Source: Mycobacterium gallinarum (lineage in GTDB: Bacteria; Actinomycetota; Actinomycetes; Mycobacteriales; Mycobacteriaceae). From it: a stretch of DNA of 64,000 nucleotides. The notes beneath the pieces are model-generated. The model did not search any database. It worked only from the letters and a program-made list of their open reading frames with translations, and was not told where the DNA came from. The stretch's first letter is position 1; each line of letters opens with the position of its first letter. Shown here in pieces: positions 34,451-60,610 of this stretch. Location of the stretch: positions 3,100,001 through 3,164,000 of the forward strand of contig NZ_AP022601.1 in the NCBI RefSeq assembly GCF_010726765.1, read 5' to 3'. The position numbers and the translations under genes were made by a program.

Positions 34451-34460
34451 TACACCGTAA
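34451..34460 (-). promoter_or_regulatory. TTACNGTGTA box with embedded -10 (copy 1)
   Basis: Read on the minus strand, TTACGGTGTA precedes the ligase ATG at 34444. TACGGT matches the -10 pattern TANNNT. One of five copies of the same oriented element in the window; this copy has G at the variable position. Confidence 0.45.
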
Positions 34461-34507
34461 AGTACCGTGGGCGGGTGCCGGTACGAGTTGGCGGAAAGAA
34501 GGCGATC

Positions 34508-35290
34508 ATGCAACACACGGTCAGCTTCGGTGTGGGGAATGAGTTGGTGGTCAGCGCCGACGGACCGGTGCGCATCGTGCGGCTCAATCGCCCGGATCAC
34601 CTCAATGGCGCCAACCGGTCGATGCATCAGGCGCTGGCTCGCGTCTGGGACCACCTCGTCGCGGACCCCCAAGCGCGGGCGGTCGTCGTCACAGGGGCGG
34701 GGACTGCGTTCAGTGCCGGCGGCGACTTCGACTACATGCAGGAGAACATCGACGACGAAGCGATGCGGGCGCAGACGATCGCCGAGGGGCGCGCCATCAT
34801 CCGGGGCATGGTGCGGTGCCCGCTGCCGGTGATCGCCGCGGTAAATGGCCCGGCGGTAGGACTGGGCTGCAGCATCGCCGTGCTGTGCGATCTCGTGCTC
34901 ATGTCGGAGGACAGCTTTCTGGCCGACCCTCATCTGCGGATGGGCCTGGTGCCCGGTGACGGCGGAATGGTGTGGCCCGCGCTCGTCGGGTTGTCGCGGG
35001 CGAAGGAGTATCTGTTCCTAGGATCGCGGATCCCGCCGGAGAAAGCGGTCGAATTCGGTCTGGCCAGTCGAGTGGTGGCGCCCGAACAGTTGATGCCCGA
35101 GGCGATGGCGCTTGCCTATCGGCTGGCGCAGGTACCGTCGAAAGCGTTGCAGCGGACGAAGACTGCCCTCAACGAGTACCTGGAGGCGCAGGTCGACGGA
35201 GCCTTCGAGTCGGCGCTGACCGGCGAGCTGGACAGTATGGGGTCCGACGAGCACCGCGAGGCCGTTGCCAAGGCCCGCATCAAGAAGTGA
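34508..35290 (+). CDS. Enoyl-CoA hydratase/isomerase family protein
   Basis: A 260-aa crotonase-fold protein with TGAGTAFSAGGDFDYM, AAVNGPAVGLGCSIAVLCDL and MGLVPGDGGMVWP. It is the only plus-strand gene between 26.4 and 41.8 kb, transcribed alone and divergent from the ligase operon. ATG at 34508 follows GAAAGAAGG. It ends immediately before the convergent acyl-CoA dehydrogenase, with no intergenic space. Confidence 0.9.
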   Translation: MQHTVSFGVGNELVVSADGPVRIVRLNRPDHLNGANRSMHQALARVWDHLVADPQARAVVVTGAGTAFSAGGDFDYMQENIDDEAMRAQTIAEGRAIIRGMVRCPLPVIAAVNGPAVGLGCSIAVLCDLVLMSEDSFLADPHLRMGLVPGDGGMVWPALVGLSRAKEYLFLGSRIPPEKAVEFGLASRVVAPEQLMPEAMALAYRLAQVPSKALQRTKTALNEYLEAQVDGAFESALTGELDSMGSDEHREAVAKARIKK

Positions 35291-36406
35291 CTAGACCAAG
35301 CCGATCAGCTTCGCGATCCGGTCGCGGTGATCGGCGGGCCAACCGAACAGCGCCTCCGAACTCTTCGCGCGTTTGAAGTAGAGGTGTGCGGAGTGCTCCC
35401 AGGTGAACCCGATGCCGCCGTGCATCTGGATGCTCTCGGCCGCAACGTGATAGAACGCCTGTGAGCAATAGACTTTGGCGATCGACGCGGCGACGGAGGC
35501 GTCATCGCTGCTGGCCGCCACCGCGGCACTGGCATACGCGGCCGCCGACCGGGCGGACTCCACCTCCACCAGCAGGTCTGCGCATCGATGCTTGATCGCC
35601 TGAAACGATCCAATGGGCCGTCCGAACTGGTGTCGCACATTGAGGTACTCGACGGTCATCGCCAGCACGGCCTGAGCGCCGCCCACCTGCTCGCACGCCA
35701 GCGCGACCAACGCCCGGTCGTACACCCCGCGCAGCGTCTCCCACCCCGACCCGTCGTCCCCCAACAGGACGGCCGGCGTCATGTCGAAGCCGACGGCGGC
35801 CAGCTGACGGGTCTTGTCCATCGACTCGAGTGGCCCGACCGAAAGACCGTCGGCGCCGGAATCCACCGCGAACAACGACACCCCCGCCACCGTTCGCGCG
35901 GCGACCAGGATGACGTCGGCCTGCGCGCCGTCGAGGACATACGGCTTTGCCCCCGACAAGAGCCACCGACCACCGGACTGCGACGCGGCCGTGGTGATGT
36001 CGTCAGGATCCCAGTGCAACTTTTCCTCCGCGACCGCAACGGTCGCGATCAGGTCGCCGGCGGCGATCCTAGCCAGCAGGCCACCCGCGTGTGAACCACC
36101 GACGGCAAGGAGTGTGCTGGTGGCCAACACCGTGGTCGACAGCAGCGGCGCGGGAAACAGCGTCCGGCCGGCCTCCTCCATGACGATCGCCAATTCGTCG
36201 AATCCGTGACCGCCGCCACCCATCTCCTCGGGAATCGCCAAGCCCTGTACGCCGATCTGCTCGGCGGCGGTACGCCAGGCTTCGGCGTCGTAGCCTGATC
36301 CGCCGTCCATGATGGTGCGGACGTCCGACTCCTTGGAGTACTTCTGCAGGAAGTCGCGCATCACGTCACGTAGCGCTTCCTGCTCGACGGTGGTGATCAG
36401 GGCCAT
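35291..36406 (-). CDS. Acyl-CoA dehydrogenase (FadE family), second of pair
   Basis: A 371-aa acyl-CoA dehydrogenase with LAIPEEMGGGG near residue 55, and RHQFGRPIGSFQAIKHRCAD and MHGGIGFTWEHSAHLYFKRA in the C-terminal domain. Its mid-domain motif is degenerate (EEKLHWDPDD region), as in the non-canonical subunit of heteromeric FadE complexes. ATG at 36406 begins 7 bp after the partner gene. It is the last gene of the 41788-35291 operon. Confidence 0.9.
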   Translation of the reverse strand: MALITTVEQEALRDVMRDFLQKYSKESDVRTIMDGGSGYDAEAWRTAAEQIGVQGLAIPEEMGGGGHGFDELAIVMEEAGRTLFPAPLLSTTVLATSTLLAVGGSHAGGLLARIAAGDLIATVAVAEEKLHWDPDDITTAASQSGGRWLLSGAKPYVLDGAQADVILVAARTVAGVSLFAVDSGADGLSVGPLESMDKTRQLAAVGFDMTPAVLLGDDGSGWETLRGVYDRALVALACEQVGGAQAVLAMTVEYLNVRHQFGRPIGSFQAIKHRCADLLVEVESARSAAAYASAAVAASSDDASVAASIAKVYCSQAFYHVAAESIQMHGGIGFTWEHSAHLYFKRAKSSEALFGWPADHRDRIAKLIGLV

Positions 36407-36413
36407 GTCACTC

Positions 36414-44282: not shown

Positions 44283-45326
44283 GTGGTGACAACGCAAGGG
44301 GGACCAGCGTTTTCGAACGCGGCCCAACTACCGCCCACCGGCAGCTTCAACTGCGGTGCGCTGGCTTCGGGACGCCGATTCGAGGCGGTCGAACTGTTGT
44401 CGGATGAGCCGATGCTCGGCTTGCAGCGCGAGGCCGGTTACATGTGGGGAACGCTCCGCGACGAGGACGGCGAACTGTATTCGGTGATGCGGCGCATCGC
44501 ACCGCCGGGGGCAGCCCAGGGCACGGGCCTCTCGCTGCCCTCCAAGCTCATCATCGTTTCCACAGGTACCGAGAAGGGTCAGCTCCAGCTGCGGCGCGAA
44601 CCGCGCGGCGCCGCTGACAGCACCGACATCGAGCGGCACCCCCACAACGACAACGCCGTGCGCTTCGCGTCCCGTCCCGATGCACCGGGACGAACGATGG
44701 AGATGGTGCTGTCCGACGGCGAGTTCTCCTACTTCGAGGCCGACGTCATCGATGTGGCAGGCCGCATGGTCGTACCGCCGCTGCAGTGGTATCTGCCCGG
44801 ACCGGAGTCCTCGCTGCTGTACATCAGCCACACCTGGCTGGTGGACGGGCTACTGCTGGGCAAGCAGGCCCGCGGATTCCTGTTCTGGGAGGAGGCGTGG
44901 ATGCCGCCGGGGGGTCAGCTCTACGTATCCAAGGATCCGCTGCACGACGCGGAGTACCTGACCTGGTACTCCTGGGCGAATCTGTTCGGTGACGGACAAT
45001 GCGAGGTCGGCCATTTCCTGTTCGGCCAGAGGGACTTTCACGTCGGCGTCTTCGCGGACAGCAGCGGCAACATCACCTCGGCCCACACGATGGACGCGGT
45101 GGTCACCCGCGCCGACGACGGCTATTGGCACGACGGCATCGACTACACGATCGACGGCGTCGACTGGGTGTGTGAACCCGACCCGCAGGGCCGAATGCAG
45201 GGCCTGGGCAAGATGCCCAACCCGCAGCAGGAGGGTCGCATGCACCGCGTCGACGACACTCGAATTCCCGATGTATGGATGGCGTGGGGCGAGACCGTGC
45301 CCGCCGCCGGGGACCGCAGGCGCTAG
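44283..45326 (+). CDS. Unrecognised protein in CoA-metabolism operon
   Basis: A 347-aa protein starting GTG-GTG after AGGAG. I do not recognise a domain. It is rich in Trp, Tyr and acidic residues, with no signal peptide or membrane segment, and looks like a mostly beta-stranded fold (YMWGTLRDEDGELYSVMRRI; LLYISHTWLVDG; FLFGQRDFHVGVFADSSG). It may belong to the lipocalin-like proteins often found beside steroid genes, but this is a guess. Third gene of the operon; its stop overlaps the convergent GntR stop at a CTAG. Confidence 0.75.
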   Translation: MVTTQGGPAFSNAAQLPPTGSFNCGALASGRRFEAVELLSDEPMLGLQREAGYMWGTLRDEDGELYSVMRRIAPPGAAQGTGLSLPSKLIIVSTGTEKGQLQLRREPRGAADSTDIERHPHNDNAVRFASRPDAPGRTMEMVLSDGEFSYFEADVIDVAGRMVVPPLQWYLPGPESSLLYISHTWLVDGLLLGKQARGFLFWEEAWMPPGGQLYVSKDPLHDAEYLTWYSWANLFGDGQCEVGHFLFGQRDFHVGVFADSSGNITSAHTMDAVVTRADDGYWHDGIDYTIDGVDWVCEPDPQGRMQGLGKMPNPQQEGRMHRVDDTRIPDVWMAWGETVPAAGDRRR

Positions 45327-46072: not shown

Positions 46073-46087
46073 ATCGGTAGACGATAT
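46071..46087. promoter_or_regulatory. Palindrome over the start codon of the GntR gene
   Basis: ATATCG (46071-46076), GTAGA, CGATAT (46082-46087). The arms are perfect, and the left arm covers the ATG of the regulator at 46070-46072. A TATCGT hexamer upstream of the ATG on the minus strand could be its -10. Likely autoregulatory site. Confidence 0.5.
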
Positions 46088-46098
46088 ACCGCGTTAGA

Positions 46099-46827
46099 TC
46101 AGCCGAGGACGTCGAGCACCATCTCCGCGTCCCCGCTGCCGCGGACCTGAGCGGCTGTCGCCCGGATGTGCTTTCGCCAGAGTGCCTCCGCACCGTCGGC
46201 GTCGCCGCGCTCGATGAGGTCGACGACGCGTCGGTGGGTGCGGGCGCCCGCCGCAACCGCCGGTCCGTGCACAGCCGGTCGCGTGACGGACATATACCGC
46301 CTTGTCGCGGCGTCGATGACCACCCGCACCATCTCGCAGAGCACTCGGAGTGTGGCATTGCCCGCGCATTCGATCAGCAGCCGGTGAAAGTCGCTCTCCA
46401 GCAGTACGAGTCGTTGGGAATCATCGACGGCCGCCGCCTCATTCGCGACCGCCGCCCGGAGCTGTCGGATCTGATCAGCGGTGTGCGACCTGGCCAGCAT
46501 CGCCACGCAGGGCCCCTCCAGGGCTGCCGCAGCCTCGAACAGGTCGGCGGTCGTCGTCCGCCGGTATTCGAGCACCGTGGCGGCGTAACCGGCGGCCGTC
46601 TCGATGCGGGGCACGCTGACGTGGATACCGCCCCTGGGCCCCCGGCGCACCGATACCAACGACTCGGACTCCAGGATCCTGATCGCCTGACGCAGCGTGG
46701 GTTTCGACACGCCCAGGTCAACGAGCAGCTCGCCTTCCGGCGGCAGTGTGTCGCCCTCCTGGAGTTCGCCGAGAATGATCCGCCTGCGCAGCGTGGCGGC
46801 AACCACATCGGCCGCCTTCGCGCTCAT
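46099..46827 (-). CDS. FadR-type GntR-family regulator (FCD domain), tandem paralogue
   Basis: A 242-aa regulator with the same layout as the gene at 45323: wHTH (LPPEGELLVDLGVSKPTLRQAIRILESESL), then an FCD domain (FHRLLIECAGNATLRVLCEMV; LWRKHIRATAAQV). ATG at 46827; earlier in-frame starts lie in the SDR gene. TTACTGTGTA sits 4-13 bp before the ATG and contains TACTGT, a -10 at leaderless distance. The regulator may thus control, or be controlled by, the TTACNGTGTA regulon. Confidence 0.9.
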   Translation of the reverse strand: MSAKAADVVAATLRRRIILGELQEGDTLPPEGELLVDLGVSKPTLRQAIRILESESLVSVRRGPRGGIHVSVPRIETAAGYAATVLEYRRTTTADLFEAAAALEGPCVAMLARSHTADQIRQLRAAVANEAAAVDDSQRLVLLESDFHRLLIECAGNATLRVLCEMVRVVIDAATRRYMSVTRPAVHGPAVAAGARTHRRVVDLIERGDADGAEALWRKHIRATAAQVRGSGDAEMVLDVLG

Positions 46828-46830: not shown

Positions 46831-46840
46831 TACACAGTAA
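46831..46840 (-). promoter_or_regulatory. TTACNGTGTA box with embedded -10 (copy 2)
   Basis: TTACTGTGTA on the minus strand. TACTGT ends 6 bp before the ATG at 46827, as expected for a leaderless promoter. Confidence 0.5.
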
Positions 46841-46850: not shown

Positions 46851-47669
46851 TCAGACCTTGGTGGCACCCATGTCCAGTGTCAGTTGTGTCCCGGTGACGG
46901 TGCGCGACAGGTCGGAGGCCAGCCACACAACCGCGTCGGAGATGTCGTCGGGCTCGGCGAGAGGCACTGCGGGCAATGCGCTGCCGAAGGACATGACGTA
47001 GGACGGGTGCTCGGTGAGCATGGTGGCCGTCATCGGATCCTCGGCCATCGGCGTCAAGACACCCCAAGGATGTATGGAGTTGACCCGGATCCCGTACTCC
47101 CCGAGTTCGAGCGCCGCGCTCTTCGTCAGGCCGACCACGCCATGTTTGGCCGCGCTGTAGTGCGCCTGACCGGGCAGCGACTTGATGCCCGCGACCGAGC
47201 TGATATTGATGATCGATCCGCCATTGCCTGCCGACAGCATGTGCGGCACAGCGGCTTTCATGGTCCGCCAGACGCCGGTCAAGTTGATGTCGATCAGCGT
47301 TTGCCATTGATCGTCGGGCATCTCCCAGAACCGTCCCCAGTTGCAGATGCCTGCGTTGGCCACCACGACGTCCAGCCGGCCGCCGAACTCGGCGACCCCT
47401 TCGGACAGCACGTACTGCAGTGCGTCTTCGTCCCGAACATCGGCGATGTTGGCCAGGATGCGCGCTCCCTCAGCCTCGACGAGCCGCGCCGTCTCGTCCA
47501 ACTCGGCGGCGGTGGCTGCCGGATACGTATTGGCCGTGGCGGCCGGGCCACCGATGTCGATCGCGATGATCGACGCACCCTCGCGCGCCAGCCGAATGGC
47601 GTGACTACGGCCCTGCCCGCGCGCGGCGCCAGTCACGAATGCGACCCGGCCGGCCAGCAGTGACGTCAT
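46851..47669 (-). CDS. Mycofactocin-coupled SDR family oxidoreductase
   Basis: A 272-aa SDR with TGAARGQGRSHA and the insertion after strand 2 (PAATANTYPAATAAELDETA) that identify the mycofactocin-linked family. NAG and the catalytic NISSVAGIKSLPGQAHYSAAKHG block are intact. ATG at 47669 overlaps the thioesterase stop (ATGA). The likely reaction is oxidation of an alcohol to a ketone or aldehyde. Confidence 0.9.
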   Translation of the reverse strand: MTSLLAGRVAFVTGAARGQGRSHAIRLAREGASIIAIDIGGPAATANTYPAATAAELDETARLVEAEGARILANIADVRDEDALQYVLSEGVAEFGGRLDVVVANAGICNWGRFWEMPDDQWQTLIDINLTGVWRTMKAAVPHMLSAGNGGSIINISSVAGIKSLPGQAHYSAAKHGVVGLTKSAALELGEYGIRVNSIHPWGVLTPMAEDPMTATMLTEHPSYVMSFGSALPAVPLAEPDDISDAVVWLASDLSRTVTGTQLTLDMGATKV

Positions 47670-48202
47670 CGGGCTTCCCCGTTCACGCTCTTCAACCATT
47701 CCTCGTGGCGGGCGAAGTGATCCGCAGGGCGGCGCACCATCGTCGCTTCGGCGGAGGCGACGAGGAAGTCGGTGCCCGCCAACACAATGTCGGCCTCGAC
47801 GTACACCCGCCGGCCCCCGCGACCCACTTCACGGGCGCGGCCGATCAATGGCCGCTCGACGGGCGCGGGTTTGACGAATTTCACCTTCAGGGTGCCGGTC
47901 ACGACGAACTCGCCACGCAGAAGCAGTGCATGGCCGACCATCTCGTCGAGAATCCCTGCGGTCCATCCGCCATGTGCGACGTTGGGTCCGCCCTCGTTGT
48001 CGCGTGGGCATTCGACCTCACTGATGACGACGAGGCCGTCCGACTGGAGCGTTTCGCGATGCAGACCAAGACGACATCGGGAGAGGCGTTGGCAGGAGCC
48101 GCAGAGTACGACGCCGGTGGATGACCGCACCGCGCGCAAGCCATCGTCCGGTCCATCGCTGTGGATCCGGCCCAGAGGTTCGGCCGATGTCCCGTCACCC
48201 AT
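47666..48202 (-). CDS. PaaI-type hotdog thioesterase
   Basis: A 178-aa single-hotdog protein. The motif AHGGWTAGILDEMVGHALLL matches the HGG-x-D catalytic helix of PaaI thioesterases. The N terminus (about residues 30-50) contains LCGSCQRLSRCRLG, whose spaced cysteines are unusual and might bind zinc. ATG 48202 is preferred to a TTG at 48211. It is the first gene of the operon that continues with the SDR and two regulators. Confidence 0.85.
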   Translation of the reverse strand: MGDGTSAEPLGRIHSDGPDDGLRAVRSSTGVVLCGSCQRLSRCRLGLHRETLQSDGLVVISEVECPRDNEGGPNVAHGGWTAGILDEMVGHALLLRGEFVVTGTLKVKFVKPAPVERPLIGRAREVGRGGRRVYVEADIVLAGTDFLVASAEATMVRRPADHFARHEEWLKSVNGEAR

Positions 48203-48267
48203 GTCACCCAACTTCCGATTTCCCTGCGCCGCGGCGGCCGACTGTTGTGCTGTGTCGGGGCGTCACG

Positions 48268-48278
48268 TTACAGTGTAA
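48268..48278 (+). promoter_or_regulatory. TTACNGTGTA box with embedded -10 (copy 3)
   Basis: TTACAGTGTAA within ACGTTACAGTGTAA (48265-48278); the 11-mer is a perfect palindrome apart from its centre. TACAGT fits a -10. It lies 30-40 bp before the aldehyde dehydrogenase start. Confidence 0.6.
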
Positions 48279-48307
48279 AGGAAGCTCCCAGTTAAGGAAG
48301 GTCACCC

Positions 48308-49780
48308 ATGACGCGGATCGAATACGAGGGCCGGCTCTTCATCGACGGCGCTTTCCGGGAAGCACGATCCGGTCGACGGTATGACGTCATCAACCCCGCC
48401 GACGAGACGGCGGTCGCCAGCGCCGCCGACGCCGGCGCTGAGGACGTTTACGACGCGGTGACGGCCGCCCGCCGAGCTGCCGACGAGACGACGTGGGGCA
48501 CCGACCACAAGTTCCGGCGGCACTGCCTCGAGCAGCTTCAGGCGGCGCTGCGCAACGATGTCGAGGAATTCCAGAAACTCGTCACCGCAGAGGCGGGTGT
48601 CGCCAGCTCGGTCATCGTCACACACGTCGACAGGATGATCGACGGAATGGACTTCTGGAACGACCTGACGACGTCATTCATGTGGGAGGAAGATCTGGGG
48701 CCCTACGAGCTCCTGGGGATGCAGAGCGATCGGCGGATTCGGTACGAGCCGTACGGCGTGGTCGGTGCGGTCACCCCGTGGAATGCCCCCTTCATGACCG
48801 CGATCTGGAAGGTCAGCCACGCGATGGCGACGGGTAATACCGTGGTGCTGAAGAGCGCTCCGGACACTCCGCTGACGGCGGCCAAGATGGCGCAGGTAAT
48901 CAGCGAATCGACCGACATCCCGGCGGGTGTCGTGAACATGATCAGCTCGCAGGACAAGGCGATCGCCGGCGACGCACTCACCGGTGATCCGCGAGTTGAC
49001 ATGTTCCACTTCACCGGTTCACCGGGCGTGGGCCAGCGCATAATGGAGCGCGCCGCAAATGGAATCCGCCACGTCGTGCTCGAACTCGGTGGAAAATCGG
49101 CGAACGTGCTACTCCCGGATGCCGACCTGGACATGGCGTCCGCGCTCGGGGTCGGGATGTGCATGTCGAGCAGTGGCCAGGGCTGCGCGCTGCCGACCCG
49201 CATGATCGTGCACGCCGACATCTACGACGCGGTGCTCCAGCGGCTCGAGTCGATGGTGAGCTACCTACCGTGGGGGGATCCCACCGATCCGACCAATGTG
49301 GTCGGACCGATCATCCGCGCCGAGCAGTTGGAACGCATCGTCGGACTGGTGGACCGCGCACAAGACGCCGGCGCCCGAGTTCTCTGCGGCGGCAAACGAG
49401 CTGACCGTGACAAGGGCTTCTGGTATGAGCCAACCGTTCTCGCCGACGTAGACGAGAACGCCGAAATCGCACAGTCAGAGGTCTTCGGCCCGGTCCTCAG
49501 CGTCATCCGCTACGACGGCGACGACAATGAGGCCGTCCGTGTCGCAAACAACACCCGCTACGGGTTGTCGGCGTACGTCCAATCCCGCGACGAGGAGCGC
49601 GCGTGGCGGGTGGCGAATCGGTTGAGGGCTGGCACCGTGAATATCAACAACTCGTTCTACCTGTCGCCCGACGCACCGTTCAGCGGCTGGGGCATCAGCG
49701 GCGTAGGTAGCGAGCACGGCCTCGCAGGATTCCGTGATTACCTGCGCATCAAGACCGTCGCCAGCCCAACGAAGGCTTGA
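48308..49780 (+). CDS. NAD(P)-dependent aldehyde dehydrogenase
   Basis: A 490-aa ALDH with the general-base motif LELGGKSAN (Glu259), the nucleophile in GQGCALPTR (Cys293), and the Rossmann region TPWNAPF and HFTGSPGVG. It oxidises an aldehyde to the acid. A strong AAGGAAGG site precedes the ATG. It is driven by a TTACNGTGTA promoter and is followed by a thioesterase and a GMC oxidoreductase, which could supply the aldehyde from an alcohol. Confidence 0.95.
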   Translation: MTRIEYEGRLFIDGAFREARSGRRYDVINPADETAVASAADAGAEDVYDAVTAARRAADETTWGTDHKFRRHCLEQLQAALRNDVEEFQKLVTAEAGVASSVIVTHVDRMIDGMDFWNDLTTSFMWEEDLGPYELLGMQSDRRIRYEPYGVVGAVTPWNAPFMTAIWKVSHAMATGNTVVLKSAPDTPLTAAKMAQVISESTDIPAGVVNMISSQDKAIAGDALTGDPRVDMFHFTGSPGVGQRIMERAANGIRHVVLELGGKSANVLLPDADLDMASALGVGMCMSSSGQGCALPTRMIVHADIYDAVLQRLESMVSYLPWGDPTDPTNVVGPIIRAEQLERIVGLVDRAQDAGARVLCGGKRADRDKGFWYEPTVLADVDENAEIAQSEVFGPVLSVIRYDGDDNEAVRVANNTRYGLSAYVQSRDEERAWRVANRLRAGTVNINNSFYLSPDAPFSGWGISGVGSEHGLAGFRDYLRIKTVASPTKA

Positions 49781-49790
49781 CCGGCCGACG

Positions 49791-50231
49791 GTGAACACAC
49801 ACAACGCGAATGGCGGCAACGGCTCAGCGGTCGGCGCGGTATTGCGGATCGAGCCGCGGTGGACGGATCTGGACCCGTTGGGACACGTGACCAACAGCGT
49901 GTTCCTGGTGTACGCCGAGGAGGCGCGGGCCCGTTATCTTCGCGCGGTCCTGCCTGAAGCGTGGAGTTCGGTCGTGGTGGTACACAACGCCGTTGACTAT
50001 CACGCACCAGTCCATGAAACGGATGTCGTGGAGGTGTCGTCGGTCGTCGACGACGTCGGCACTTCGTCCCTCACCACTGTCAACGTCATGATCACCGCCA
50101 AGGGCCCGTGCGCGACGGTGCGAACCGTCCAGGTAGTACTGCGCGAAGCCGGCTCAGGCACCCGCCCGTGGACCGCTTCCGAGCGGGCAGCTCTGGAGGC
50201 CGCGTCCGAATCACAAGAGGAACGGGTCTAA
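49791..50231 (+). CDS. 4HBT-type hotdog thioesterase (FadM-like)
   Basis: A 146-aa protein. RWTDLDPLGHVTNSVFLVYAEEARARYL is the typical 4-hydroxybenzoyl-CoA thioesterase/FadM signature, with the catalytic Asp and HVxN. GTG at 49791 is 10 bp after the ALDH stop; an earlier in-frame ATG lies inside ALDH. It probably hydrolyses an acyl-CoA in the same pathway. Confidence 0.88.
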   Translation: MNTHNANGGNGSAVGAVLRIEPRWTDLDPLGHVTNSVFLVYAEEARARYLRAVLPEAWSSVVVVHNAVDYHAPVHETDVVEVSSVVDDVGTSSLTTVNVMITAKGPCATVRTVQVVLREAGSGTRPWTASERAALEAASESQEERV

Positions 50232-50236
50232 CCGCC

Positions 50237-51841
50237 ATGTCAGATTTCGACTACATCGTCGTCGGCGCAGGTTCGGCGGGATGCGTATTAGCCAATCGAC
50301 TTTCGAAGGATCCACGCAATCGTGTGCTGCTGATCGAGGCCGGAGGCAGTGGACGCAGTCCTTTAGTCCGGGTACCAAAGGGGTTCGGAAAGATGCTGTC
50401 CAATCCCAAGCTGGCCTGGCAGTATCCCGTGAGGCCGATCGGATCCTCCGGGCGTGTGGAGCAATGGGCACGGGGCCGCATGCTCGGTGGGTCCAGTTCC
50501 ATTAACGGAATGGTCTACAACCGAGGCAGCGCAGCGGATTACGACGCGCTTGTCGAGCTCGGTAATCCGGGGTGGGGATGGGACAAGATCCTGCCGATAT
50601 TCCGAAAAATCGAGAACCACCAACTCGGCGCGAACGAGATGCGCGGTGCCGGTGGGCCACTCGACATCTCCATTGGCACCGAGTTGATGGAGCCCTGCGG
50701 GGATCTCCTACAGTCGGGGTCCAAACTTGGCTGGTCGGTCACCGACGACGCAAACAGCGACGACGGCGAGCGAATAGGCCCGGCGGCAAGGACCATCAAA
50801 GACGGTCGGCGAGTGAGCGCCGCGTGGGCGTTCCTCCGGCCCATTCGGGGGCGACCCAACCTGACGATCGCTGTCAATACCACGGTGAACCGCGTGTTGT
50901 TCGAAGGCGACAAAGCCGTCGGGGTAGAAGCGACGACGCCCAAGAACAGCCGCGTCACCTTCACCGCCCGACGAGAGACCATTCTTTCTCTAGGCAGCCT
51001 GGCGACTCCGAAGCTGTTGCAGCTCTCGGGAATTGGTGAGCGATCACTTCTTCGCGGTCTGGGTATAGATACGATCGTGGACAGCCCTAACGTCGGCTGC
51101 CGCATGCGCGAGCACCACTGCTTCGCGATCCAATTCCGACTCAATCGCAACATCGGCATGAATCGCTACCTGAGCACCCCTGTGCAACAGGCGATCACCA
51201 GCGGCAAATACTTGATGACACATAAGGGCCCGATGGCGACAGGGGCCTACGATGTGATCGGCTTCTTCAAGACCTCGCGCGATCAAACTCGCCCAAACGC
51301 CCAGATCCTGATGGCACCATTTTCTGCCGCACCGTACGAAGCGGGCAAGGAACTCGGTCTGGAGCGGGAGCCAGGCATACAGGCGATCGGATACGTATTG
51401 CGGCCCGACAGCGAAGGCTACCTCGCAATCACATCGGCCGATCCGGCAGCGCCCCTTGACATCGAACCTAATTTCTTTACCACTCAACATGATCGAGATA
51501 CCGGCGTCGCCTTGTTCAGGGCAATGCGCGAGTTGTTCGCTCAAGAACCCATCTCGCAGTATCTCGTTCGTGAACTCGTGCCTGGACCCGACGTCACTAG
51601 CGACGATGACATCATCGATGCCGGGTTGAACGAGGGGTATTGCGGATATCACGCTGTCGGAACGTGCGCGATGGGACCAGCCGACGACGACGTGGTGGAC
51701 CCGACGTTGCGGGTCCGCGGTGTGGACAAGCTGCGGGTCATGGACTGTTCGGTCATGCCGAGGATGGTGTCAGGCAATCTGAATGGTCCCGTCATGGCGA
51801 TGGCTTGGCGGGCCGCAGATCTGATCCTGTCCGGCTACTGA
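50237..51841 (+). CDS. GMC-family flavoprotein oxidoreductase (choline dehydrogenase-like)
   Basis: A 534-aa FAD enzyme. Dinucleotide motif VVGAGSAGCVLANRLS, GMC signature 1 (RMLGGSSSINGMVYNRG), signature 2 (GSLATPKLLQLSGIG), and the C-terminal catalytic region GYHAVGTCAMG...SGNLNGPVMAMAWRAAD with His and Asn. It oxidises a primary or secondary alcohol. The ATG is 5 bp after the thioesterase stop. It is the last gene of the ALDH operon. Confidence 0.94.
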   Translation: MSDFDYIVVGAGSAGCVLANRLSKDPRNRVLLIEAGGSGRSPLVRVPKGFGKMLSNPKLAWQYPVRPIGSSGRVEQWARGRMLGGSSSINGMVYNRGSAADYDALVELGNPGWGWDKILPIFRKIENHQLGANEMRGAGGPLDISIGTELMEPCGDLLQSGSKLGWSVTDDANSDDGERIGPAARTIKDGRRVSAAWAFLRPIRGRPNLTIAVNTTVNRVLFEGDKAVGVEATTPKNSRVTFTARRETILSLGSLATPKLLQLSGIGERSLLRGLGIDTIVDSPNVGCRMREHHCFAIQFRLNRNIGMNRYLSTPVQQAITSGKYLMTHKGPMATGAYDVIGFFKTSRDQTRPNAQILMAPFSAAPYEAGKELGLEREPGIQAIGYVLRPDSEGYLAITSADPAAPLDIEPNFFTTQHDRDTGVALFRAMRELFAQEPISQYLVRELVPGPDVTSDDDIIDAGLNEGYCGYHAVGTCAMGPADDDVVDPTLRVRGVDKLRVMDCSVMPRMVSGNLNGPVMAMAWRAADLILSGY

Positions 51842-51912: not shown

Positions 51913-52392
51913 TCAGCTCCACATCGTTAACGCCTCGAGCGGCACGACTCTGCCGCTCAGGCCCTCAGGACGGCCCATCGTCCTGGGCACCAGCATGCGG
52001 CGCGCGAAGCGCCACCCTTCCGGCGTCCGCAGGCACTCGTCCTCGTAGACACCCAGGAACTGGATGGGCCGACCATCGGATGCGCGCCTCGCCCATTCGG
52101 TTATCGGGAAGCGGGCCCGCGCTGTGTCACCGCCGACCTGCACCAGCCCTTGATGAACGGTCTGGAAGACGAACTCCAGTCCGGCTGTCGTCGCCGTGAT
52201 GGTCTTGATGACCGCATCTCGTCCGATCGCTGGTTCTGTTGTCGGCGAGTGCAGTTCGCCGTTTACCACGTATGTCTGACATGCTTCGGCGACATCACCA
52301 CGCGACACTGCGTCGGCGTACGCGGCGGCCAGGTGGTGGATTGCCAGCACGTCACATGCCTCGCCGGCGTCGCGTGGTTGCCGAGGGATCAT
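51913..52392 (-). CDS. SnoaL-like/NTF2-fold protein
   Basis: A 159-aa cone-shaped alpha+beta barrel protein: IHHLAAAYADAVSRGDVAEA at the start and the EDECLRTPEGWRFARRMLVPR C-terminal strands are typical of the SnoaL/steroid-isomerase-like superfamily. Members act as small isomerases, hydrolases or ligand-binding proteins. It is the last gene of the minus operon that begins at the amidohydrolase (56746). Confidence 0.85.
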   Translation of the reverse strand: MIPRQPRDAGEACDVLAIHHLAAAYADAVSRGDVAEACQTYVVNGELHSPTTEPAIGRDAVIKTITATTAGLEFVFQTVHQGLVQVGGDTARARFPITEWARRASDGRPIQFLGVYEDECLRTPEGWRFARRMLVPRTMGRPEGLSGRVVPLEALTMWS

Positions 52393-54775: not shown

Positions 54776-54788
54776 ACCAGCTCCTTTA

Positions 54789-55631
54789 TCAGTCATACAT
54801 CCGCATCCGCACGAAAGTCGCAGCGATGAGGCGGTCTCCACGCCCGGCGTCGCGCAGTTCGACCCGGCACCCCACGGAGTCGCCCTCGATCGCAGTGAAT
54901 ACCGCTGTGGCGATGAACGGCCCCACCCGGCCCGGCGCCACCACGGTCATCGCCAGGTGCTCGACAACGAGTTCGTCGGTGCCGAGCGCCTCGGCGGCGC
55001 TTTCCAGCGCGACCGCCTCGGTCACGACGAGCATCGGTCCATGGTGCAGCCGTTCTTCGCCGACCTCGAGAGGCAGGCGGGGTATCTCCATCGCGCCGTC
55101 AGTCCGTCGGCGGCCCGAGTACGCGTGCCACAGCGGCGGCAATCCGGCCCAGTCCGGCTCCGGCGGCCCAGGCTGCGGAAAGCAGAAGCGGTGCGGCGAC
55201 CAGTTGAGCACCGCCCAGTTCGCGGTGCCGAAACCGATGTGGCGCCCGGCGTCATCGGCGTCGTTGATTCGAGCCTCGGTGAACAGCTGCGATCGCATTT
55301 CCGTTGTGATGCGCCCGGCGAGATGCGCCTGACGGATATCGAGCGCGCAGTCGACGATGTCGATGTCGACCTGAGTCACCGCGAGGACCCTCATCCCCTC
55401 GACGTTGACCGTGGCGGCGTCGAGCATCGCGATGCCCAACGGAGCCGCAAGCACCGCACCGGCAGCGGTCCGCAGGTCGGGTCGCAAGTCGAGCAGATTT
55501 TCAGCGCTGGTCGAGTCGATCGCCTGCGGCCGCGACCCCAGGTAGGCGTAGCTCATCAGCACTCCCCGGGTGGCGGCCCAATCCCCTTGCGGGTCGGGCG
55601 CCGGGCGGCGTGCCGCAGCTGTGTCGGTCAC
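54789..55631 (-). CDS. Double-hotdog acyl-CoA thioesterase-like protein, copy 1
   Basis: A 280-aa protein of uncertain function. Two hotdog-like halves can be seen: residues about 55-140 (AAPLGIAMLDAATVNVEG) and about 190-280 (RLHHGPMLVVTEAVALESAA). A paralogue of the same length is encoded at 60923-61765, with clearly matching blocks such as LHHGPMLVVTEA, VAPGRVGPF and GCRVELRD. Its start overlaps the amidohydrolase stop (ATGA). A thioesterase or hydratase-like CoA function is inferred from the fold only. Confidence 0.72.
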   Translation of the reverse strand: MTDTAAARRPAPDPQGDWAATRGVLMSYAYLGSRPQAIDSTSAENLLDLRPDLRTAAGAVLAAPLGIAMLDAATVNVEGMRVLAVTQVDIDIVDCALDIRQAHLAGRITTEMRSQLFTEARINDADDAGRHIGFGTANWAVLNWSPHRFCFPQPGPPEPDWAGLPPLWHAYSGRRRTDGAMEIPRLPLEVGEERLHHGPMLVVTEAVALESAAEALGTDELVVEHLAMTVVAPGRVGPFIATAVFTAIEGDSVGCRVELRDAGRGDRLIAATFVRMRMYD

Positions 55632-56746
55632 CGGGAGGCGGCGTCGTCGTCCAGATCCGGCACGGTGAACAGTTCCTCGAACGTGCCTCGCAGTACCCGT
55701 TCCTTGATGCGCGGATCGACCGAGTCGAACAACTGGTGCAGCGTCTCCTGGGTGTGGCCGTAGGTGCCTTCCAGGTGTGGGTAGTCATCGCCCCACATCA
55801 CATTGTTGTACTGCGTGTCCTCGATGATCTGCACCGCACTGATGTCGTGCTGGAAGGATGCGTAGACCTGTTGGCGGACGATTTCGCTGGGCAGCCGATT
55901 CAGCCTGGGCCGCACAAACATTCCGTGTTGGCGGTACGCCTCGTCCATCCGGTCACCGATCGCGGGGACCCAGCCGGCACCACCCTCGGCGATCAGCACC
56001 TTCAGGTCGGGGTGGCGGTCGAGCGCGCCGCCGGCGACCAGATGCGACACCACCCGCATCCCGGGATACGTCGTCTCCATGTAGTTGACGACCGCACCGC
56101 CGGGACCGCGGTAGACAACGTTCTCGCCGCCGGTTCCGATGTGGTAGGCCAGCACCATGTTGTTGGCGTCGGCCGCCGACCACAACGGCTCCCAGAGATC
56201 CAGACCCCACTCCTGGTCGGCGGGCATCGTGCACGGCAGGAAAATGGACTGAAAGCCTTGTTCGGCAGCCCATTCCACTTCGGCGGCGGCGTCGGCGGGC
56301 TCGACAAGCGGCACGATTGCCGGCGTGAAGATGCGCTTCTGCCAGGACATGACCTCGTCTCGGGACCACTCGTTCCACGCCCGGGCGGCCGCACGGGACA
56401 GTTCGGCATCCTTGATGTTGACTGTCCAGAAACCGGCGGACGGGAAGGCCAGCTGGCACTGGACGCCTTCCCGGTCCAAGTCCTGCAGCCGGATCGCGAT
56501 GTCTGACGCGCCCGGTGGACGCATAGCGTCCATGAAGTCGTTGAGCTGACGGCTCAATTGCTGACCGTCGACGTAGACGATCTCGTACTTCTCGCCGCGC
56601 TCGGTTCGCGGGGCGCGGTCCGCCAGTCGTTTGGGCAGCCGCGAGGTCCACAGGTCGTCGGGCTCCATTGCATGCGAATCACCCGAATGGGCCCAGATCT
56701 TCTCCCGCTCGTGGACGTCAGCCGACATCTCGGTTACCTGCGTCAT
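55628..56746 (-). CDS. Amidohydrolase-2 family protein (DxHxxEP type)
   Basis: A 372-aa TIM-barrel protein. N-terminal GDSHAMEP is the DxHxxEP variant of the metal motif, the central LAYHIGTGGE and VSHLVAGG supply His residues, and the C-terminal MWGDDYPHLEGTY the metal Asp. Relatives include ACMSD-like decarboxylases and hydrolases abundant in mycobacterial catabolic islands. ATG 56746 has AAAGGAG. It heads the operon with the double-hotdog protein and the double CoA-transferase. Confidence 0.88.
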   Translation of the reverse strand: MTQVTEMSADVHEREKIWAHSGDSHAMEPDDLWTSRLPKRLADRAPRTERGEKYEIVYVDGQQLSRQLNDFMDAMRPPGASDIAIRLQDLDREGVQCQLAFPSAGFWTVNIKDAELSRAAARAWNEWSRDEVMSWQKRIFTPAIVPLVEPADAAAEVEWAAEQGFQSIFLPCTMPADQEWGLDLWEPLWSAADANNMVLAYHIGTGGENVVYRGPGGAVVNYMETTYPGMRVVSHLVAGGALDRHPDLKVLIAEGGAGWVPAIGDRMDEAYRQHGMFVRPRLNRLPSEIVRQQVYASFQHDISAVQIIEDTQYNNVMWGDDYPHLEGTYGHTQETLHQLFDSVDPRIKERVLRGTFEELFTVPDLDDDAASR

Positions 56747-56794: not shown

Positions 56795-56808
56795 TTACAC
56801 TGTAACGT
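56795..56808. promoter_or_regulatory. TTACNGTGTA box in divergent promoter (copy 4)
   Basis: TTACACTGTAACGT on the plus strand; on the minus strand ACGTTACAGTGTAA with -10 TACAGT reads toward the amidohydrolase. TACACT in the other direction could serve the acyl-CoA dehydrogenase at 56855. Flanking TCTGACC is shared with copy 5. Confidence 0.6.
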
Positions 56809-56854: not shown

Positions 56855-58159
56855 GTGGGAACTGGCAAAGCAGCACAGGCAGGTTCGATCGTCTCAACTC
56901 ACCCAGACTTTGAGGATGCACTGACGCCGGACACGCTCGCGGCGCTGATGCGCTCGACGTGGACATGGGACGACCGCGCGCTGCGACGCGATCTCAGCGC
57001 ACTGCTGGTGGAGGTCGCCGCGGCGCGCGGCGACGTCGCCGACGCGTCCATTGGTACAGCACTGCGCGCGCGGGCACTCGCTACGGCGGCGCGCTTCGTG
57101 GCCAACGTGCTGGGGCCCCGTCTGGCCGCGGACGTCGGCGGCACTATTCATAGCCAATTATTCTCGGCTGCAGTAGATCCGGCAATATTCGACCGGGCCG
57201 CCAGCAGCACTCGCTCCGAGGTTCGGGCGCGTGCCCGACAGTACTTGCGCGCGCACGCACAGACTGTCAACAACCCCGACGAGTCGTCGTGGCTGACAAT
57301 GGCCACCGCGAATGGAGTCCGCGGACTTGGCGAGGCGATGCGCGAATACGGGTACGCCCTCGCAACGTCACCGCTTCTCGGAAACGTCGCATTGGCCTGG
57401 CAGACGCTTCGAGCGCTTGGAGCCGACGGATCCGAGTACGCGGCGCGGATCGCGCAAGGCGAGATCAGTGCAACGCTGGCGGCCGCCGAGCGGTCCGGGT
57501 CGTGGGACCCCGCCCTCGTCCGCACGAAGGCAAATCCCGTTTTGGAGGGTTGGACGCTGACCGGGGCGAAACATTTCGTTCCCGACGCGGCCGGTGCGGA
57601 TCTCGTCCTCACCATTGCGCGCTCGATAGCGGGCCCGTCACTGTTCGCCGTCGACGCGAAGGCGCCGGGCGTAACGATGACCGAGCTCGCCGGGATCGAC
57701 GCGACCCGGCCACTGTTCAGCATCGAGTTTGATGACACCCCGGCCGAACTGCTCGGCGAGGAAGGGCGTGGCGGGGCGTTGATGCGCCAATCCATCGACC
57801 TGCTGATGACGGCATTGGCCGGCGAACAGGTCGGTATCATCGAGCGAGCCGTCGATGTGCTGTCGCGACATGCGCATGACGGTTCGCTCGAGCAGGAGTT
57901 GGTCCAGGCGACCCTGGACCATGCCGCTGCGATCTCGCTTTGGCGGCAGGCCCTGGACAACGAGGCGGCCGTGGGGTCAGCGGCGGCGGCCCACATCGGT
58001 TGTTCCACCGCATCACTGCGGGTGGCAAGCTTGGCCGCCGAGGTCGCCGGCGGTTCCGAGGAGGCCACCGCGATCCAGCGGCGCGCGCTGTCGTCGAACC
58101 TGCTACTCGGCGGGCCCGCCGTGTTCTACGAGCGACTACTCGACCGTCTCGGAATATGA
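56855..58159 (+). CDS. Divergent acyl-CoA dehydrogenase-like protein
   Basis: A 434-aa protein with a normal acyl-CoA dehydrogenase N-terminal and middle domain (TMATANGVRGLGEAMREYGYALATSPLLGNVA; AAERSGSWDP; GWTLTGAKHFVPDAAGADL) after an N-terminal extension of about 100 Ala-rich residues. The C-terminal domain is degenerate and lacks the usual Gly-Thr-x-Glu FAD loop, so it may be an accessory subunit. GTG start with GGGAGG. It shares the divergent promoter with the amidohydrolase. Confidence 0.82.
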   Translation: MGTGKAAQAGSIVSTHPDFEDALTPDTLAALMRSTWTWDDRALRRDLSALLVEVAAARGDVADASIGTALRARALATAARFVANVLGPRLAADVGGTIHSQLFSAAVDPAIFDRAASSTRSEVRARARQYLRAHAQTVNNPDESSWLTMATANGVRGLGEAMREYGYALATSPLLGNVALAWQTLRALGADGSEYAARIAQGEISATLAAAERSGSWDPALVRTKANPVLEGWTLTGAKHFVPDAAGADLVLTIARSIAGPSLFAVDAKAPGVTMTELAGIDATRPLFSIEFDDTPAELLGEEGRGGALMRQSIDLLMTALAGEQVGIIERAVDVLSRHAHDGSLEQELVQATLDHAAAISLWRQALDNEAAVGSAAAAHIGCSTASLRVASLAAEVAGGSEEATAIQRRALSSNLLLGGPAVFYERLLDRLGI

Positions 58160-58226: not shown

Positions 58227-58901
58227 CTGATCCCTGCCAAAGAGGCTGCCGCGGATACGGCGTCGGGTACCGCGAAGCGAGGCAAACCACCGACGCTGAC
58301 CGAAGAGCAGATCGTCGATGCGGCGCTGGACATCATCCGCGCCGAAGGCCTCGACGCGTTGTCCATGCGCAGGCTGTCCCGCGAACTCGGCAGATCCGCG
58401 ATGGCGCCGTACTGGTACGTCAGCGACAAACGGGAACTACTCGACCTCGTGGCGCGCAAGTTACTTTCGGAAGTTGTGCTACCCGAACCGGATTCGGGGC
58501 CGTGGGAGGATCGACTGCGCGACGTCTTGTACGGCATCGATGCGCGGCTGCATGATCACCCGGGGATCGCCACGGTCATGCTCGAGCGTATGCGCAGCAC
58601 AGACCAGCGCCTGATGAATGGGATCCTGGAGATTTTGCAGAGCGCTGGATTCGAAGGGCCGACCGTGTTTCTGTCCTACGCGATGATCCACACCTATCTG
58701 TTCGGCCGCTATCAGGTGGTGGAATTGGACACCCCCGATCCCTCCGAGGTGGACCCCGGCGAGCTGGAGGACACCCTGGCCAAGCTGGTGCCCCACCTGA
58801 CCGGCCTGCGCGGGCGGGACTTCTTCAACTACGGCGTCGATACGATCATCGAGGGGCTGCGAGCACAGCTCGCCGCTAAGAAGTCGAAGAAGTCGCGCTA
58901 G
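58227..58901 (+). CDS. TetR-family regulator with a non-standard start
   Basis: A clear TetR domain: TEEQIVDAALDIIRAEGLDALSMRRLSRELGRSAMAPYWYVSDKREL, followed by a TetR_C-like helical domain and a Lys-rich end (KKSKKSR). No ATG, GTG or TTG lies in frame between the upstream stop and the domain; the best candidate is CTG at 58227, four bases after GGAG. Frames reaching further up run inside the upstream gene. A 224-aa product is normal for the family. It is the nearest regulator to boxes 4 and 5 of the TTACNGTGTA series. Confidence 0.78.
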   Translation: MIPAKEAAADTASGTAKRGKPPTLTEEQIVDAALDIIRAEGLDALSMRRLSRELGRSAMAPYWYVSDKRELLDLVARKLLSEVVLPEPDSGPWEDRLRDVLYGIDARLHDHPGIATVMLERMRSTDQRLMNGILEILQSAGFEGPTVFLSYAMIHTYLFGRYQVVELDTPDPSEVDPGELEDTLAKLVPHLTGLRGRDFFNYGVDTIIEGLRAQLAAKKSKKSR

Positions 58902-59150: not shown

Positions 59151-59169
59151 GCGACATCGCGTTCACCCA

Positions 59170-59352
59170 CACCGATGAACACCGGAATGCTCAGCGCGGC
59201 GGCCTCTGCGCTGATGTAACCAGGCGACAGCATCGCCACCACGCACGGCGGAATCGTCTTGCTGCCGAAGGCAGAAGCGTTGTCACGCAACGGATATCCG
59301 CCTGATGTGTCGGCCGCGACGATGTCTACCTTTTGAATCGCCAGGTCATCGG
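59170..59352 (-). pseudogene. Alpha/beta-hydrolase-fold fragment
   Basis: An open stretch reads IQKVDIVAADTSGGYPLRDN, later AAALSIPVFIGVGERDVAP. The strand-loop-Asp motif VFIGVGERDV is the usual acid-residue region of alpha/beta hydrolases, but the N-terminal half, the GxSxG nucleophile elbow and the C-terminal His are absent. It is bounded by the P450 stop at 59353 and the RidA remnant, so it is a second decayed gene. Confidence 0.6.
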
Positions 59353-60549
59353 CTAGCTGGGCGTGAACTTAATCGGCAGGCTGGTGGCCATTCGGACCGA
59401 GACGTTGTCGTAGACCAAGTCCTCCACCGCTGGGATGGTGTAATCCGGTATACGAGTGAGAATCTCGTCCAAGGCGATCCTCAGCTCCATGCGTGCAAGG
59501 TGAGACCCGAGGCAGCGATGCGTTCCGCTGGCGAACACGATATGGCTCTGGCGGCCGCGGTCGAAGTTCACTGTCAGGGGGTCGTCGTAGTGGGTCGGGT
59601 CGACGTTCGCTGCTGCCCAGAAGGCATGAATGGGCTCTCCGGCTTTGATAACCAGGCCGTCGCCCAAATCGATGTCTTCGGTGGGGTGCCGCTGCCCCGA
59701 CGGCACCGGAGATTCGTAGCGCATTATCTCCTCGATGGCTGCGGGGAGAAGCGATCGATCCGCGATCAGGCGGTCCCGCGCCTCGGGGTGTTGGCCCAGC
59801 CATGCGAAGATGCACGACAACGACGACGTCACCGTGTCAAGACCGGCGAACATCAGCAGGAACATGATGTTCAACAGGTCCAACTCGGCGATGGGCTTGC
59901 CGTCAACCTCCGACCGCAAGAGCACGGCGATCACGTCTTCCTTCTGGTCGGTCTCCTCGCGGCGCTTGGCCAGAAAATCGACGAAGTACGCAAGTAGCTT
60001 GCCGCCCGCCTCTGCCATATTGGCTTCGATTTCTTCGACCGTGTCACCTTGGGGGTGGATCACGCCATCCTTGAAAGCGATGAAGAAGTCGAGGTCCTCG
60101 ATCGGCGCCCCGACGAGACGCAGGAACGTGAGTGACGGCAAGGGAACACAGAATTCGTCGTGCAGTTCCGCTTCGCCGCGCGATGCGAATTGGTCGATGA
60201 GCTCTCCCGCGAGCTGCCGGATCTGCGCTTCCAGAGGGAACATCTGCTTGGGGCCGAAGATCGGGTCGAGTAGCTTGCGCCATTTCTTGTGGTCGTCGCC
60301 GTCTATCTCGAGCGGGATCAGGGGGTTGTCGTTTCCGAAGCTGCCGCCCTGACCGCCATTACCGAGTATGGCGGGGTGACGGTTGATCTTGATGATGTCG
60401 TCGTGGCGGTAGAGATTCCAAACCCCGTTCGACTTCTCGGCGCGGACCTTGCCTGCCTTCTCGCTGTAAAGCGCCTGCGGGCTCGCCATCGACTTGACCT
60501 GCTGGGTCAGCGGCGCGAGCCGCGGATCGAACTTCGTAGCTTGGGTCAT
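59353..60549 (-). CDS. Cytochrome P450
   Basis: A 398-aa class I P450: I-helix [11 protein letters not shown]-helix EEIMRYESPVP, heme loop FASGTHRCLGSH with Cys346, and a normal C-terminal hydrophobic end. ATG at 60549 follows GAGGACTG; the frame continues upstream to 60654, but the operator lies inside that part. It is transcribed alone from a TTACNGTGTA promoter. No ferredoxin is nearby. Confidence 0.94.
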   Translation of the reverse strand: MTQATKFDPRLAPLTQQVKSMASPQALYSEKAGKVRAEKSNGVWNLYRHDDIIKINRHPAILGNGGQGGSFGNDNPLIPLEIDGDDHKKWRKLLDPIFGPKQMFPLEAQIRQLAGELIDQFASRGEAELHDEFCVPLPSLTFLRLVGAPIEDLDFFIAFKDGVIHPQGDTVEEIEANMAEAGGKLLAYFVDFLAKRREETDQKEDVIAVLLRSEVDGKPIAELDLLNIMFLLMFAGLDTVTSSLSCIFAWLGQHPEARDRLIADRSLLPAAIEEIMRYESPVPSGQRHPTEDIDLGDGLVIKAGEPIHAFWAAANVDPTHYDDPLTVNFDRGRQSHIVFASGTHRCLGSHLARMELRIALDEILTRIPDYTIPAVEDLVYDNVSVRMATSLPIKFTPS

Positions 60550-60599
60550 CAGTCCTCGTTCTCTTGGGCCGTTGTGAAGCGGGGTCTGCACCTCTGACC

Positions 60600-60610
60600 T
60601 TACACTGTAA
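60600..60610 (-). promoter_or_regulatory. TTACNGTGTA box with embedded -10 (copy 5)
   Basis: TTACACTGTAA on the plus strand, i.e. ACGTTACAGTGTAA on the minus strand, with -10 TACAGT facing the P450 at 60549. The wider context TCTGACCTTACACTGTAACG is identical to copy 4 (56788-56807), suggesting recent duplication or strong constraint. Confidence 0.6.

What the first reader, a model, noticed from the sequence alone, without database searches (positions are those of the whole stretch)
34451..60610. Five oriented copies of a TTACNGTGTA promoter-operator element define a candidate regulon
TTACNGTGTA, read in the direction of the gene, lies in front of a ligase (34451-34460), a FadR-type regulator (46831-46840), an aldehyde dehydrogenase (48268-48278), an amidohydrolase (56795-56805) and a P450 (60600-60610). 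In each, TACNGT can act as a TANNNT -10. Three copies share ACGTTACAGTGTAA, and two share 20 identical flanking bases. By simple base counting the exact 11-mer TTACACTGTAA would be expected about 0.015 times in 64 kb, yet it occurs three times, all in intergenic DNA. The genes would form one oxidation and CoA-activation module.
Basis: partly seen in the sequence, partly recalled or inferred. Interest (0 to 1): 0.75.

Follow-up and report, generated by a model that had tools for sequence, protein, structure and literature searches.

The report
TetR repressor sites controlling terpenoid-type catabolism
Three of the five short DNA copies are probably binding sites for a repressor encoded beside them, which likely controls genes for breaking down a polycyclic, terpenoid-like acid; the other two copies look unrelated.

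Summary
The five TTACNGTGTA copies are real but are not one element. Three (48268, 56795, 60600) are a palindrome, TTACA-G-TGTAA, extended to about 17 bp (ACG-TTACAGTGTAA-RGT). Exact copies occur only three times in the 6.3-Mb genome, all within 12.3 kb. The best regulator candidate is the TetR protein at 58227-58901, from a sister clade of MftR2. In the genus sample all 5 genomes in which it was found carry the palindrome, against 4 of 143 others. In the family sample all 7 with the closest TetR (E<1e-59) carry it, against 25 of 394. Of 25 sites in relatives, none lies in a region homologous to a window protein and 22 lie within 130 bp of one. The 'amidohydrolase' is a close homologue of PtmU3, a diiron oxygenase of CoA-linked diterpenoids, so the module probably degrades a polycyclic terpenoid-like acid. 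Sites 34451 and 46831 break the palindrome, were not conserved where checked, and look like leaderless -10 boxes. GntR is not supported as the binder. New member of a known kind; a wider TetR helix-operator code is the boldest extension.

The parts
48265..48281 (+). Operator O1 (core 48268-48278), overlapping the putative -10 of the ALDH operon; divergent TE1 gene on the other side
   Evidence: Exact palindrome; present upstream of ALDH homologues in L029, L042, L044, L131
56792..56808 (-). Operator O2 (core 56795-56805) between divergent AMH1 and the ACADx-tetR genes
   Evidence: present upstream of AMH1 in 13 other loci
60597..60613 (-). Operator O3 (core 60600-60610) upstream of P450
   Evidence: present upstream of P450 in L029, L030, L039
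58227..58901 (+). TetR-family repressor (TetR_N + TetR_C_1), sister clade of MftR2; the proposed binder
   Evidence: Pfam, NCBIfam (215.5 bits, cut-off 285), model, Foldseek, co-occurrence
56855..58159 (+). Acyl-CoA dehydrogenase-like protein (ACADx), upstream of tetR on the same strand
55628..56746 (-). AMH1: PtmU3-like amidohydrolase-fold dinuclear oxygenase homologue
   Evidence: 435.6 bits to PtmU3; candidate metal ligands conserved
54789..55631 (-). Uncharacterised 280-aa protein next to AMH1
   Evidence: No Pfam or NCBIfam hit; next to AMH1 in L029, L030
52403..54820 (-). Fused double type-III CoA-transferase
51913..52392 (-). SnoaL-like protein
59353..60549 (-). Cytochrome P450; best solved match is the entry named CYP125MRCA
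48308..49780 (+). Aldehyde dehydrogenase (ALDH), Rv0768-like (531.9 bits, cut-off 775)
49734..50231 (+). Thioesterase-like protein (TE2), start uncertain
50228..51841 (+). GMC oxidoreductase, MftG-like but below cut-off
   Evidence: 271.6 vs 387.45 bits
47666..48211 (-). Thioesterase-superfamily protein (TE1), divergent from ALDH across O1
   Evidence: OAS707 has a second, one-mismatch site on this side
46851..47699 (-). Mycofactocin-coupled SDR
   Evidence: 365 bits, cut-off 300
46099..46827 (-). GntR/FCD regulator (GntR2); considered and not supported as binder
46831..46840 (-). TTACTGTGTA, non-palindromic, 3 bases before the GntR2 ATG; probable leaderless -10, not an operator
34451..34460 (-). 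TTACGGTGTA, non-palindromic, 6 bases before the acyl-CoA ligase ATG; probable leaderless -10, not an operator

Best explanation
TTACAGTGTAA at 48268, 56795 and 60600 is the core of a palindromic operator of about 17 bp, read by a dimer of the TetR-family repressor encoded at 58227-58901. The core contains a TACAGT -10 hexamer, so the bound repressor would block RNA polymerase at the ALDH-thioesterase-GMC operon, the AMH1-CoA-transferase operon and the P450 gene. Operator O2 lies between AMH1 and ACADx-tetR, so the repressor would also limit its own synthesis. An intermediate of the pathway, probably a fused-ring terpenoid-like acid or its CoA ester, would release it. Shown computationally: the palindrome, its rarity, its conservation and its co-occurrence with this TetR. 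Inferred: direct binding, repression, overlap with the transcription start, operon structure, the inducer and the substrate.
For: Exact sites: 3 in the genome, all in 12.3 kb; a 17-mer search with up to 3 mismatches found those three plus one weak site, against nine for the reversed control. Genus: 5 of 5 TetR-positive genomes carry the motif, 4 of 143 others do (Fisher 2.3e-7). Family: 7 of 7 genomes with TetR E<1e-59 against 25 of 394 others (Fisher 1.1e-8); of the 61 other TetR-matching family genomes 8 have a site, none within 100 kb of the listed TetR match. Five loci from other genera (L034, L124-L127; TetR 53-58% identical) keep the site between AMH1 and ACADx-tetR. Where tetR lies elsewhere (G248, G456, G098), sites stay with AMH1 or ALDH; one-mismatch sites lie about 0.1 kb (G456) and 0.6 kb (G117) upstream of tetR. 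0 of 25 sites in relatives lie in a region homologous to a window protein; 22 are within 130 bp of one. Outside the selected core, C at -7 (27 of 29), A at -8 (23), G at +7 (22) and T at +8 (21) extend the palindrome. Helix 3 is GRS[AQ]MA in 15 of 16 aligned clade members and DRSAMA in the other (G098); 22 of 23 MftR2-like proteins outside the clade read GVSPMA and one GVSAMA. At ALDH, a TTG element lies 17-18 nt upstream of TACAGT in 4 of 5 loci (read).
Against: No binding or expression data. The E<1e-59 split was chosen after seeing the list, and only 7 candidates per genome were scored in the family search and 20 in the genus search, so some absences may be misses. TetR and its target cluster could be inherited together without binding. 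No convincing -35 was found for AMH1 or ACADx, nor at the fifth ALDH locus, L131. G098 has tetR about 1.7 Mb from its only exact site. URHB0044 (L031) has only one-mismatch sites. At one of four P450 sites the central base is reversed. A site in G239 contig 23 has no convincing target.
Confidence: 0.83

Rival explanations
1. The FCD-type GntR regulator (46099-46827), or its neighbour 45323-46072, binds the sites.
For: GntR2 lies on the side facing O1 and has a TTACTGTGTA at its own start. G067 and G098 have 71% and 60% orthologues and the motif.
Against: The other eight TetR-positive, motif-positive genomes have only 33-50% relatives at best; 74 of 148 genus genomes have a match at E<=1e-30, and only 9 of 148 have the motif. 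The start-proximal copy is absent upstream of the two closest orthologues. The FCD consensus TNGTNNNACNA (recalled) does not fit TTACASTGTAA. The neighbour 45323-46072 was not searched for on its own.
Confidence: 0.06
2. The repeats are only strong -10 promoter elements, with no operator function.
For: TACAGT fits TANNNT; the central base is G in the direction of AMH1, ALDH, P450 or LUX in 23 of 24 exact sites with an assigned gene.
Against: A -10 box does not need an 11-17 bp palindrome absent from the rest of the genome or tied to one TetR clade.
Confidence: 0.05
3. All five TTACNGTGTA copies, plus the one at genome position 3052178, are sites of one regulon, the non-palindromic three being weak sites.
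For: Three of the four non-palindromic genome copies lie in one 108-kb stretch that includes the cluster, each just before the ATG of a CoA-ligase, regulator or CoA-transferase gene. CoA-ligase genes carry exact sites in G117 and G248 and a one-mismatch site in URHB0044.
Against: Most of the ten TetR-positive relatives carry a few scattered TTAC[CGT]GTGTA copies, and the reversed control is as common. The GntR2 copy is absent and the ligase copy altered in the orthologues checked.
Confidence: 0.12

Closest known systems
MftR2 (NCBIfam NF038211, mycofactocin system regulator)
   Same: Strongest NCBIfam match; 44-52% identity to MftR2-like proteins (four of them tested pass the cut-off); same TetR domains
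   Different: 215.5 bits against a cut-off of 285; different helix 3; the MftR2-like genes do not have TTACASTGTAA nearby
MftR of M. smegmatis and its 27-bp operator (PMC8728441, passages read)
   Same: TetR-family repressor in mycobacteria linked to mycofactocin; inducers are acyl-CoAs
   Different: Operator T-N2-GGCA-N5-TGCC-N2-A is unrelated to TTACA-S-TGTAA
ActR and TetR(D) (PDB 2opt, 1bjz)
   Same: Among the best sequence and fold matches; solved with fused-ring ligands; recalled: the tet operator is also an odd-length palindrome with one central base
   Different: 19-30% identity in the fold search; recalled: they control drug export, not a CoA-ester pathway
PtmU3 (PDB 6omp), diiron hydroxylase in diterpenoid biosynthesis
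   Same: AMH1: 435.6 bits over 351 residues; candidate metal ligands identical
   Different: AMH1 sits in a catabolic-looking cluster; activity untested

Membership tests
TetR family (TetR_N + TetR_C_1) | HTH and C-terminal domains above curated cut-off | tested here: met
   28.5 vs 24 and 30.7 vs 21 bits
TetR family (TetR_N + TetR_C_1) | TetR fold | tested here: met
   Model mean pLDDT 83; best Foldseek matches ActR and TetR
TetR family (TetR_N + TetR_C_1) | Palindromic operator near its own gene and targets | tested here: met
   By conservation only:
TetR family (TetR_N + TetR_C_1) | Ligand-released DNA binding | not testable with these tools
   Needs protein and ligand
MftR2 (NF038211) | Score above curated cut-off 285 | tested here: not met
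   215.5 bits; four clade relatives 214-242; four MftR2-like proteins 328-367
MftR operator | GGCA-N5-TGCC palindrome | tested here: not met
PtmU3-type dinuclear oxygenases (AROs) | Metal-site residues | tested here: met
   D23, H25, H202, E254, D321, H324, E326 are identical in the PtmU3 alignment. E326 is PtmU3 E313, named in PMC7782822; the other six were matched by motif to the AibH2 ligand set in that paper, an inference
PtmU3-type dinuclear oxygenases (AROs) | O2-dependent hydroxylation | not testable with these tools
   Needs assay
Sigma-70-type promoter overlapping the operator | TANNNT -10 with a TTG-like -35 at 16-19 nt | tested here: inconclusive
   ALDH has TTGTGC at 18 nt and TTG at 17 nt in three of four relatives; P450 4 of 6 at 17 nt; AMH1 and ACADx none convincing
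GntR FCD operator | TNGTNNNACNA (recalled) | tested here: not met
   By inspection of TTACASTGTAA; the consensus comes from no call

The most novel reading that the evidence does not exclude
TTACA-S-TGTAA is the operator of a whole group of TetR_C_1 repressors whose recognition helix reads [AQ]M[AS]xY, across proteins as little as about 28% identical. Of 27 exact sites examined (of 29 found) in genomes where this TetR was not found, 11 lie within 143 bp of the HTH region of another TetR protein, all with AM[SA]LY in the helix. Queries not taken from these loci give the same 11 of 27, and 0 of 30 loci of the reversed control palindrome. The helix would let operators be predicted for many uncharacterised repressors.
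Probability: 0.5. Interest if true: 0.55.

Novelty: new member of a known kind. Interest (0 to 1): 0.42.

Why it matters
It names a probable regulator, operator and target set for an uncharacterised actinobacterial pathway that combines a PtmU3-like dinuclear oxygenase homologue, a P450 and a mycofactocin-coupled dehydrogenase, with relatives in Mycobacterium, Mycolicibacterium and Gordonia. The regulator's inducer would point to the substrate. The wider helix-operator link offers a testable recognition rule for TetR proteins. In the held library the 11-mer turned up only in papers on other subjects (listings), the 9-mers with TetR gave unrelated papers, and MftR2 is not mentioned; most subscription papers are not held.

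Tried and rejected
GntR as binder: not supported. MftR operator identity: rejected. MftR2 membership: rejected by score. Palindromes near MftR2-like genes: one 13-base palindrome was shared by 13 of 23 loci, was not followed up and is not TTACASTGTAA. Paper searches on diterpenoid degradation: nothing in the listings looked like this cluster; PMC13063091 does not mention DitZ. Three of 25 sites in relatives are not within 130 bp of a window-gene homologue; two lie before CoA-ligase genes, one before a gene with a thiolase C-terminal domain. Counting three of those five by the genes found later adds one G (G248 ligase) and two C (G117 ligase, G507 thiolase-like; both also have an open frame on the other side). 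Of the 27 other sites, 16 showed no TetR nearby with my queries. The queries came partly from the tested loci; one search repeated the test and control without them.
Full report
OBSERVATION. TTACNGTGTA occurs at the five stated places; shuffles expect 0.01. Three copies are the exact palindrome TTACA-S-TGTAA. The genome (6,301,681 bases; the window is C1:3100001-3164000) holds seven TTACNGTGTA, against eight of its reversed control, and only three exact TTACASTGTAA, all in the window within 12.3 kb, with one more place at one mismatch against 16 for the control. Base counting expects 0.004 in the window. A 17-mer search (ACSTTACASTGTAASGT, up to three mismatches) found the same three sites and one weak one, the reversed control nine. 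The sites at 56795 and 60600 share a 21-base block that includes the core.

SPLITTING THE FIVE. The copies at 34451 and 46831 break the palindrome and end 6 and 3 bases before an ATG; centre-to-start is 12 and 9 against 35-56 bases for the true sites. This fits leaderless promoters with TACNGT as -10. The GntR2 copy is absent upstream of the two orthologues of 60% identity or more; the G067 ligase homologue (64%) has a related but different sequence. Against a clean split: three of the four non-palindromic copies in the genome lie in one 108-kb stretch with the cluster and all precede catabolic or regulator genes. Most of the TetR-positive relatives also carry a few scattered non-A copies.

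THE REGULATOR. The TetR protein at 58227-58901 has TetR_N and TetR_C_1, a TetR fold and scores 215.5 against the MftR2 model with cut-off 285. In 148 genomes of the genus it was found in 5 (E<=1e-30; 20 candidates scored per genome at most) and the motif in 9; all 5 are among the 9 (Fisher 2.3e-7). In 401 genomes of the family, 68 have a TetR match (7 candidates scored per genome) and 32 the motif. All 7 with E<1e-59 have the motif, against 25 of 394 others (Fisher 1.1e-8); that threshold was chosen after seeing the list. Of the 61 weaker TetR matches, 8 genomes have a site (G210, G225, G273, G344, G399, G448, G457, G483), none within 100 kb of the match. Helix 3 reads GRS[AQ]MA in 15 of 16 aligned clade members and DRSAMA in the other. 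Of 23 weaker matches read, 22 have GVSPMA and one GVSAMA; four tested pass the MftR2 cut-off (328-367 bits), four tested clade members do not (214-242).

CONSERVED ANATOMY. Six named records hold relatives of the TetR (Mycobacterium sp. OAS707, M. deserti, sp. URHB0044, M. hodleri, a Mycolicibacterium MAG, a Gordonia MAG). Five have an exact site about 1.4-1.5 kb upstream of tetR; URHB0044 has only one-mismatch sites. Further sites precede CoA-ligase genes in G117 and G248 and a gene with a thiolase C-terminal domain in G507. Of 25 exact sites in relatives (L033 and L137 left out), 0 lie inside a region homologous to a window protein and 22 are within 130 bp of one; coding frames without a window homologue were not excluded by that test. 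OAS707 has two sites 22 bp apart upstream of P450. Over 29 exact sites the flanks extend the palindrome at positions 7 and 8; many of these sites are orthologous, so they are not independent. The central base is G toward the target in 23 of 24 exact sites with an assigned gene (AMH1 14, ALDH 5, P450 3 of 4, LUX 1); most AMH1 sites are also divergent, so this is direction toward AMH1.

PROMOTER. At ALDH a TTG element lies 17-18 nt upstream of TACAGT in the window and in three of four relatives (read; L131 lacks it). P450 has a 4-of-6 match at 17 nt; AMH1 and ACADx have none convincing. Overlap with -10 is therefore plausible for ALDH and P450 and undecided for AMH1.

PATHWAY. AMH1 is a strong homologue of PtmU3 (435.6 bits), and seven residues that I take for the metal site are identical. 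PtmU3 is described as a beta-hydroxylase in diterpenoid biosynthesis that accepts CoA-ligated substrates and has a diiron centre, and the group as amidohydrolase-related dinuclear oxygenases (passages of PMC7782822, PMC10811679 and PMC10401708). The P450's best solved match is the entry named CYP125MRCA, the SDR is mycofactocin-coupled, the GMC enzyme is MftG-like below cut-off, and a KshA-like Rieske protein and a luciferase-like enzyme follow. The substrate is therefore inferred to be a polycyclic terpenoid-like acid handled as CoA ester. The closest solved relatives of the TetR were solved with fused-ring molecules, in line with such an inducer.

GNTR. Among the ten other TetR-positive genomes, GntR2 orthologues of 60% or more were found only in G067 and G098; the other eight have 33-50% relatives at best.

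WIDER CODE. Of the 29 other exact sites found were examined: 11 lie within 143 bp of the HTH region of a different TetR protein, all with AM[SA]LY in helix 3. Some queries came from these very loci; with queries from elsewhere (window TetR, two relatives, ActR, SCO7704) the result is the same 11 of 27, and 0 of 30 loci of the reversed palindrome (one search gave 0 of 30 with the first queries). The queries may still favour this subfamily. The five of these proteins tested carry TetR_C_1. The 11 fall into about seven groups by eye. One MftR2-like protein with GVSAMA (G225) has its genome's single site on another contig, so the rule is not sufficient.

LITERATURE. The 11-mer in either form was found only in papers on other subjects (titles and abstract starts seen); the 9-mers with TetR gave unrelated papers; MftR2 gave none. 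The MftR operator differs (passages).

Noticed in passing
window 55628-56746: Gene that family models call amidohydrolase is a close PtmU3 homologue with the candidate dinuclear metal site intact, in a catabolic-looking cluster.
   Followed up: partly
window 60650-60925: Remnant of a short-chain dehydrogenase reading frame, broken across two frames, beside the P450 operator.
   Followed up: partly
window 52403-54820: Two type-III CoA-transferase domains fused in one 805-residue protein.
   Followed up: no
L029 11939-11971: OAS707 carries two exact operators 22 bp apart upstream of P450.
   Followed up: no
genome C1:3052178-3052187 (L001): Another TTACGGTGTA sits 3 bases before the ATG of a CoA-transferase III gene, with enoyl-CoA hydratase and acyl-CoA dehydrogenase genes beside it.
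   Followed up: partly
window 46070-46088 and L133 upstream of 7259: A 19-base element (TATATCRTCTACCGATATG) is shared by the window and G067 at the start of the first GntR gene, possibly a separate regulatory site.
   Followed up: no
L073-L095: A 13-base palindrome CTCCTGCCAGGAG is shared by 13 of 23 loci around MftR2-like genes; it could be coding or an MftR2 operator.
   Followed up: no
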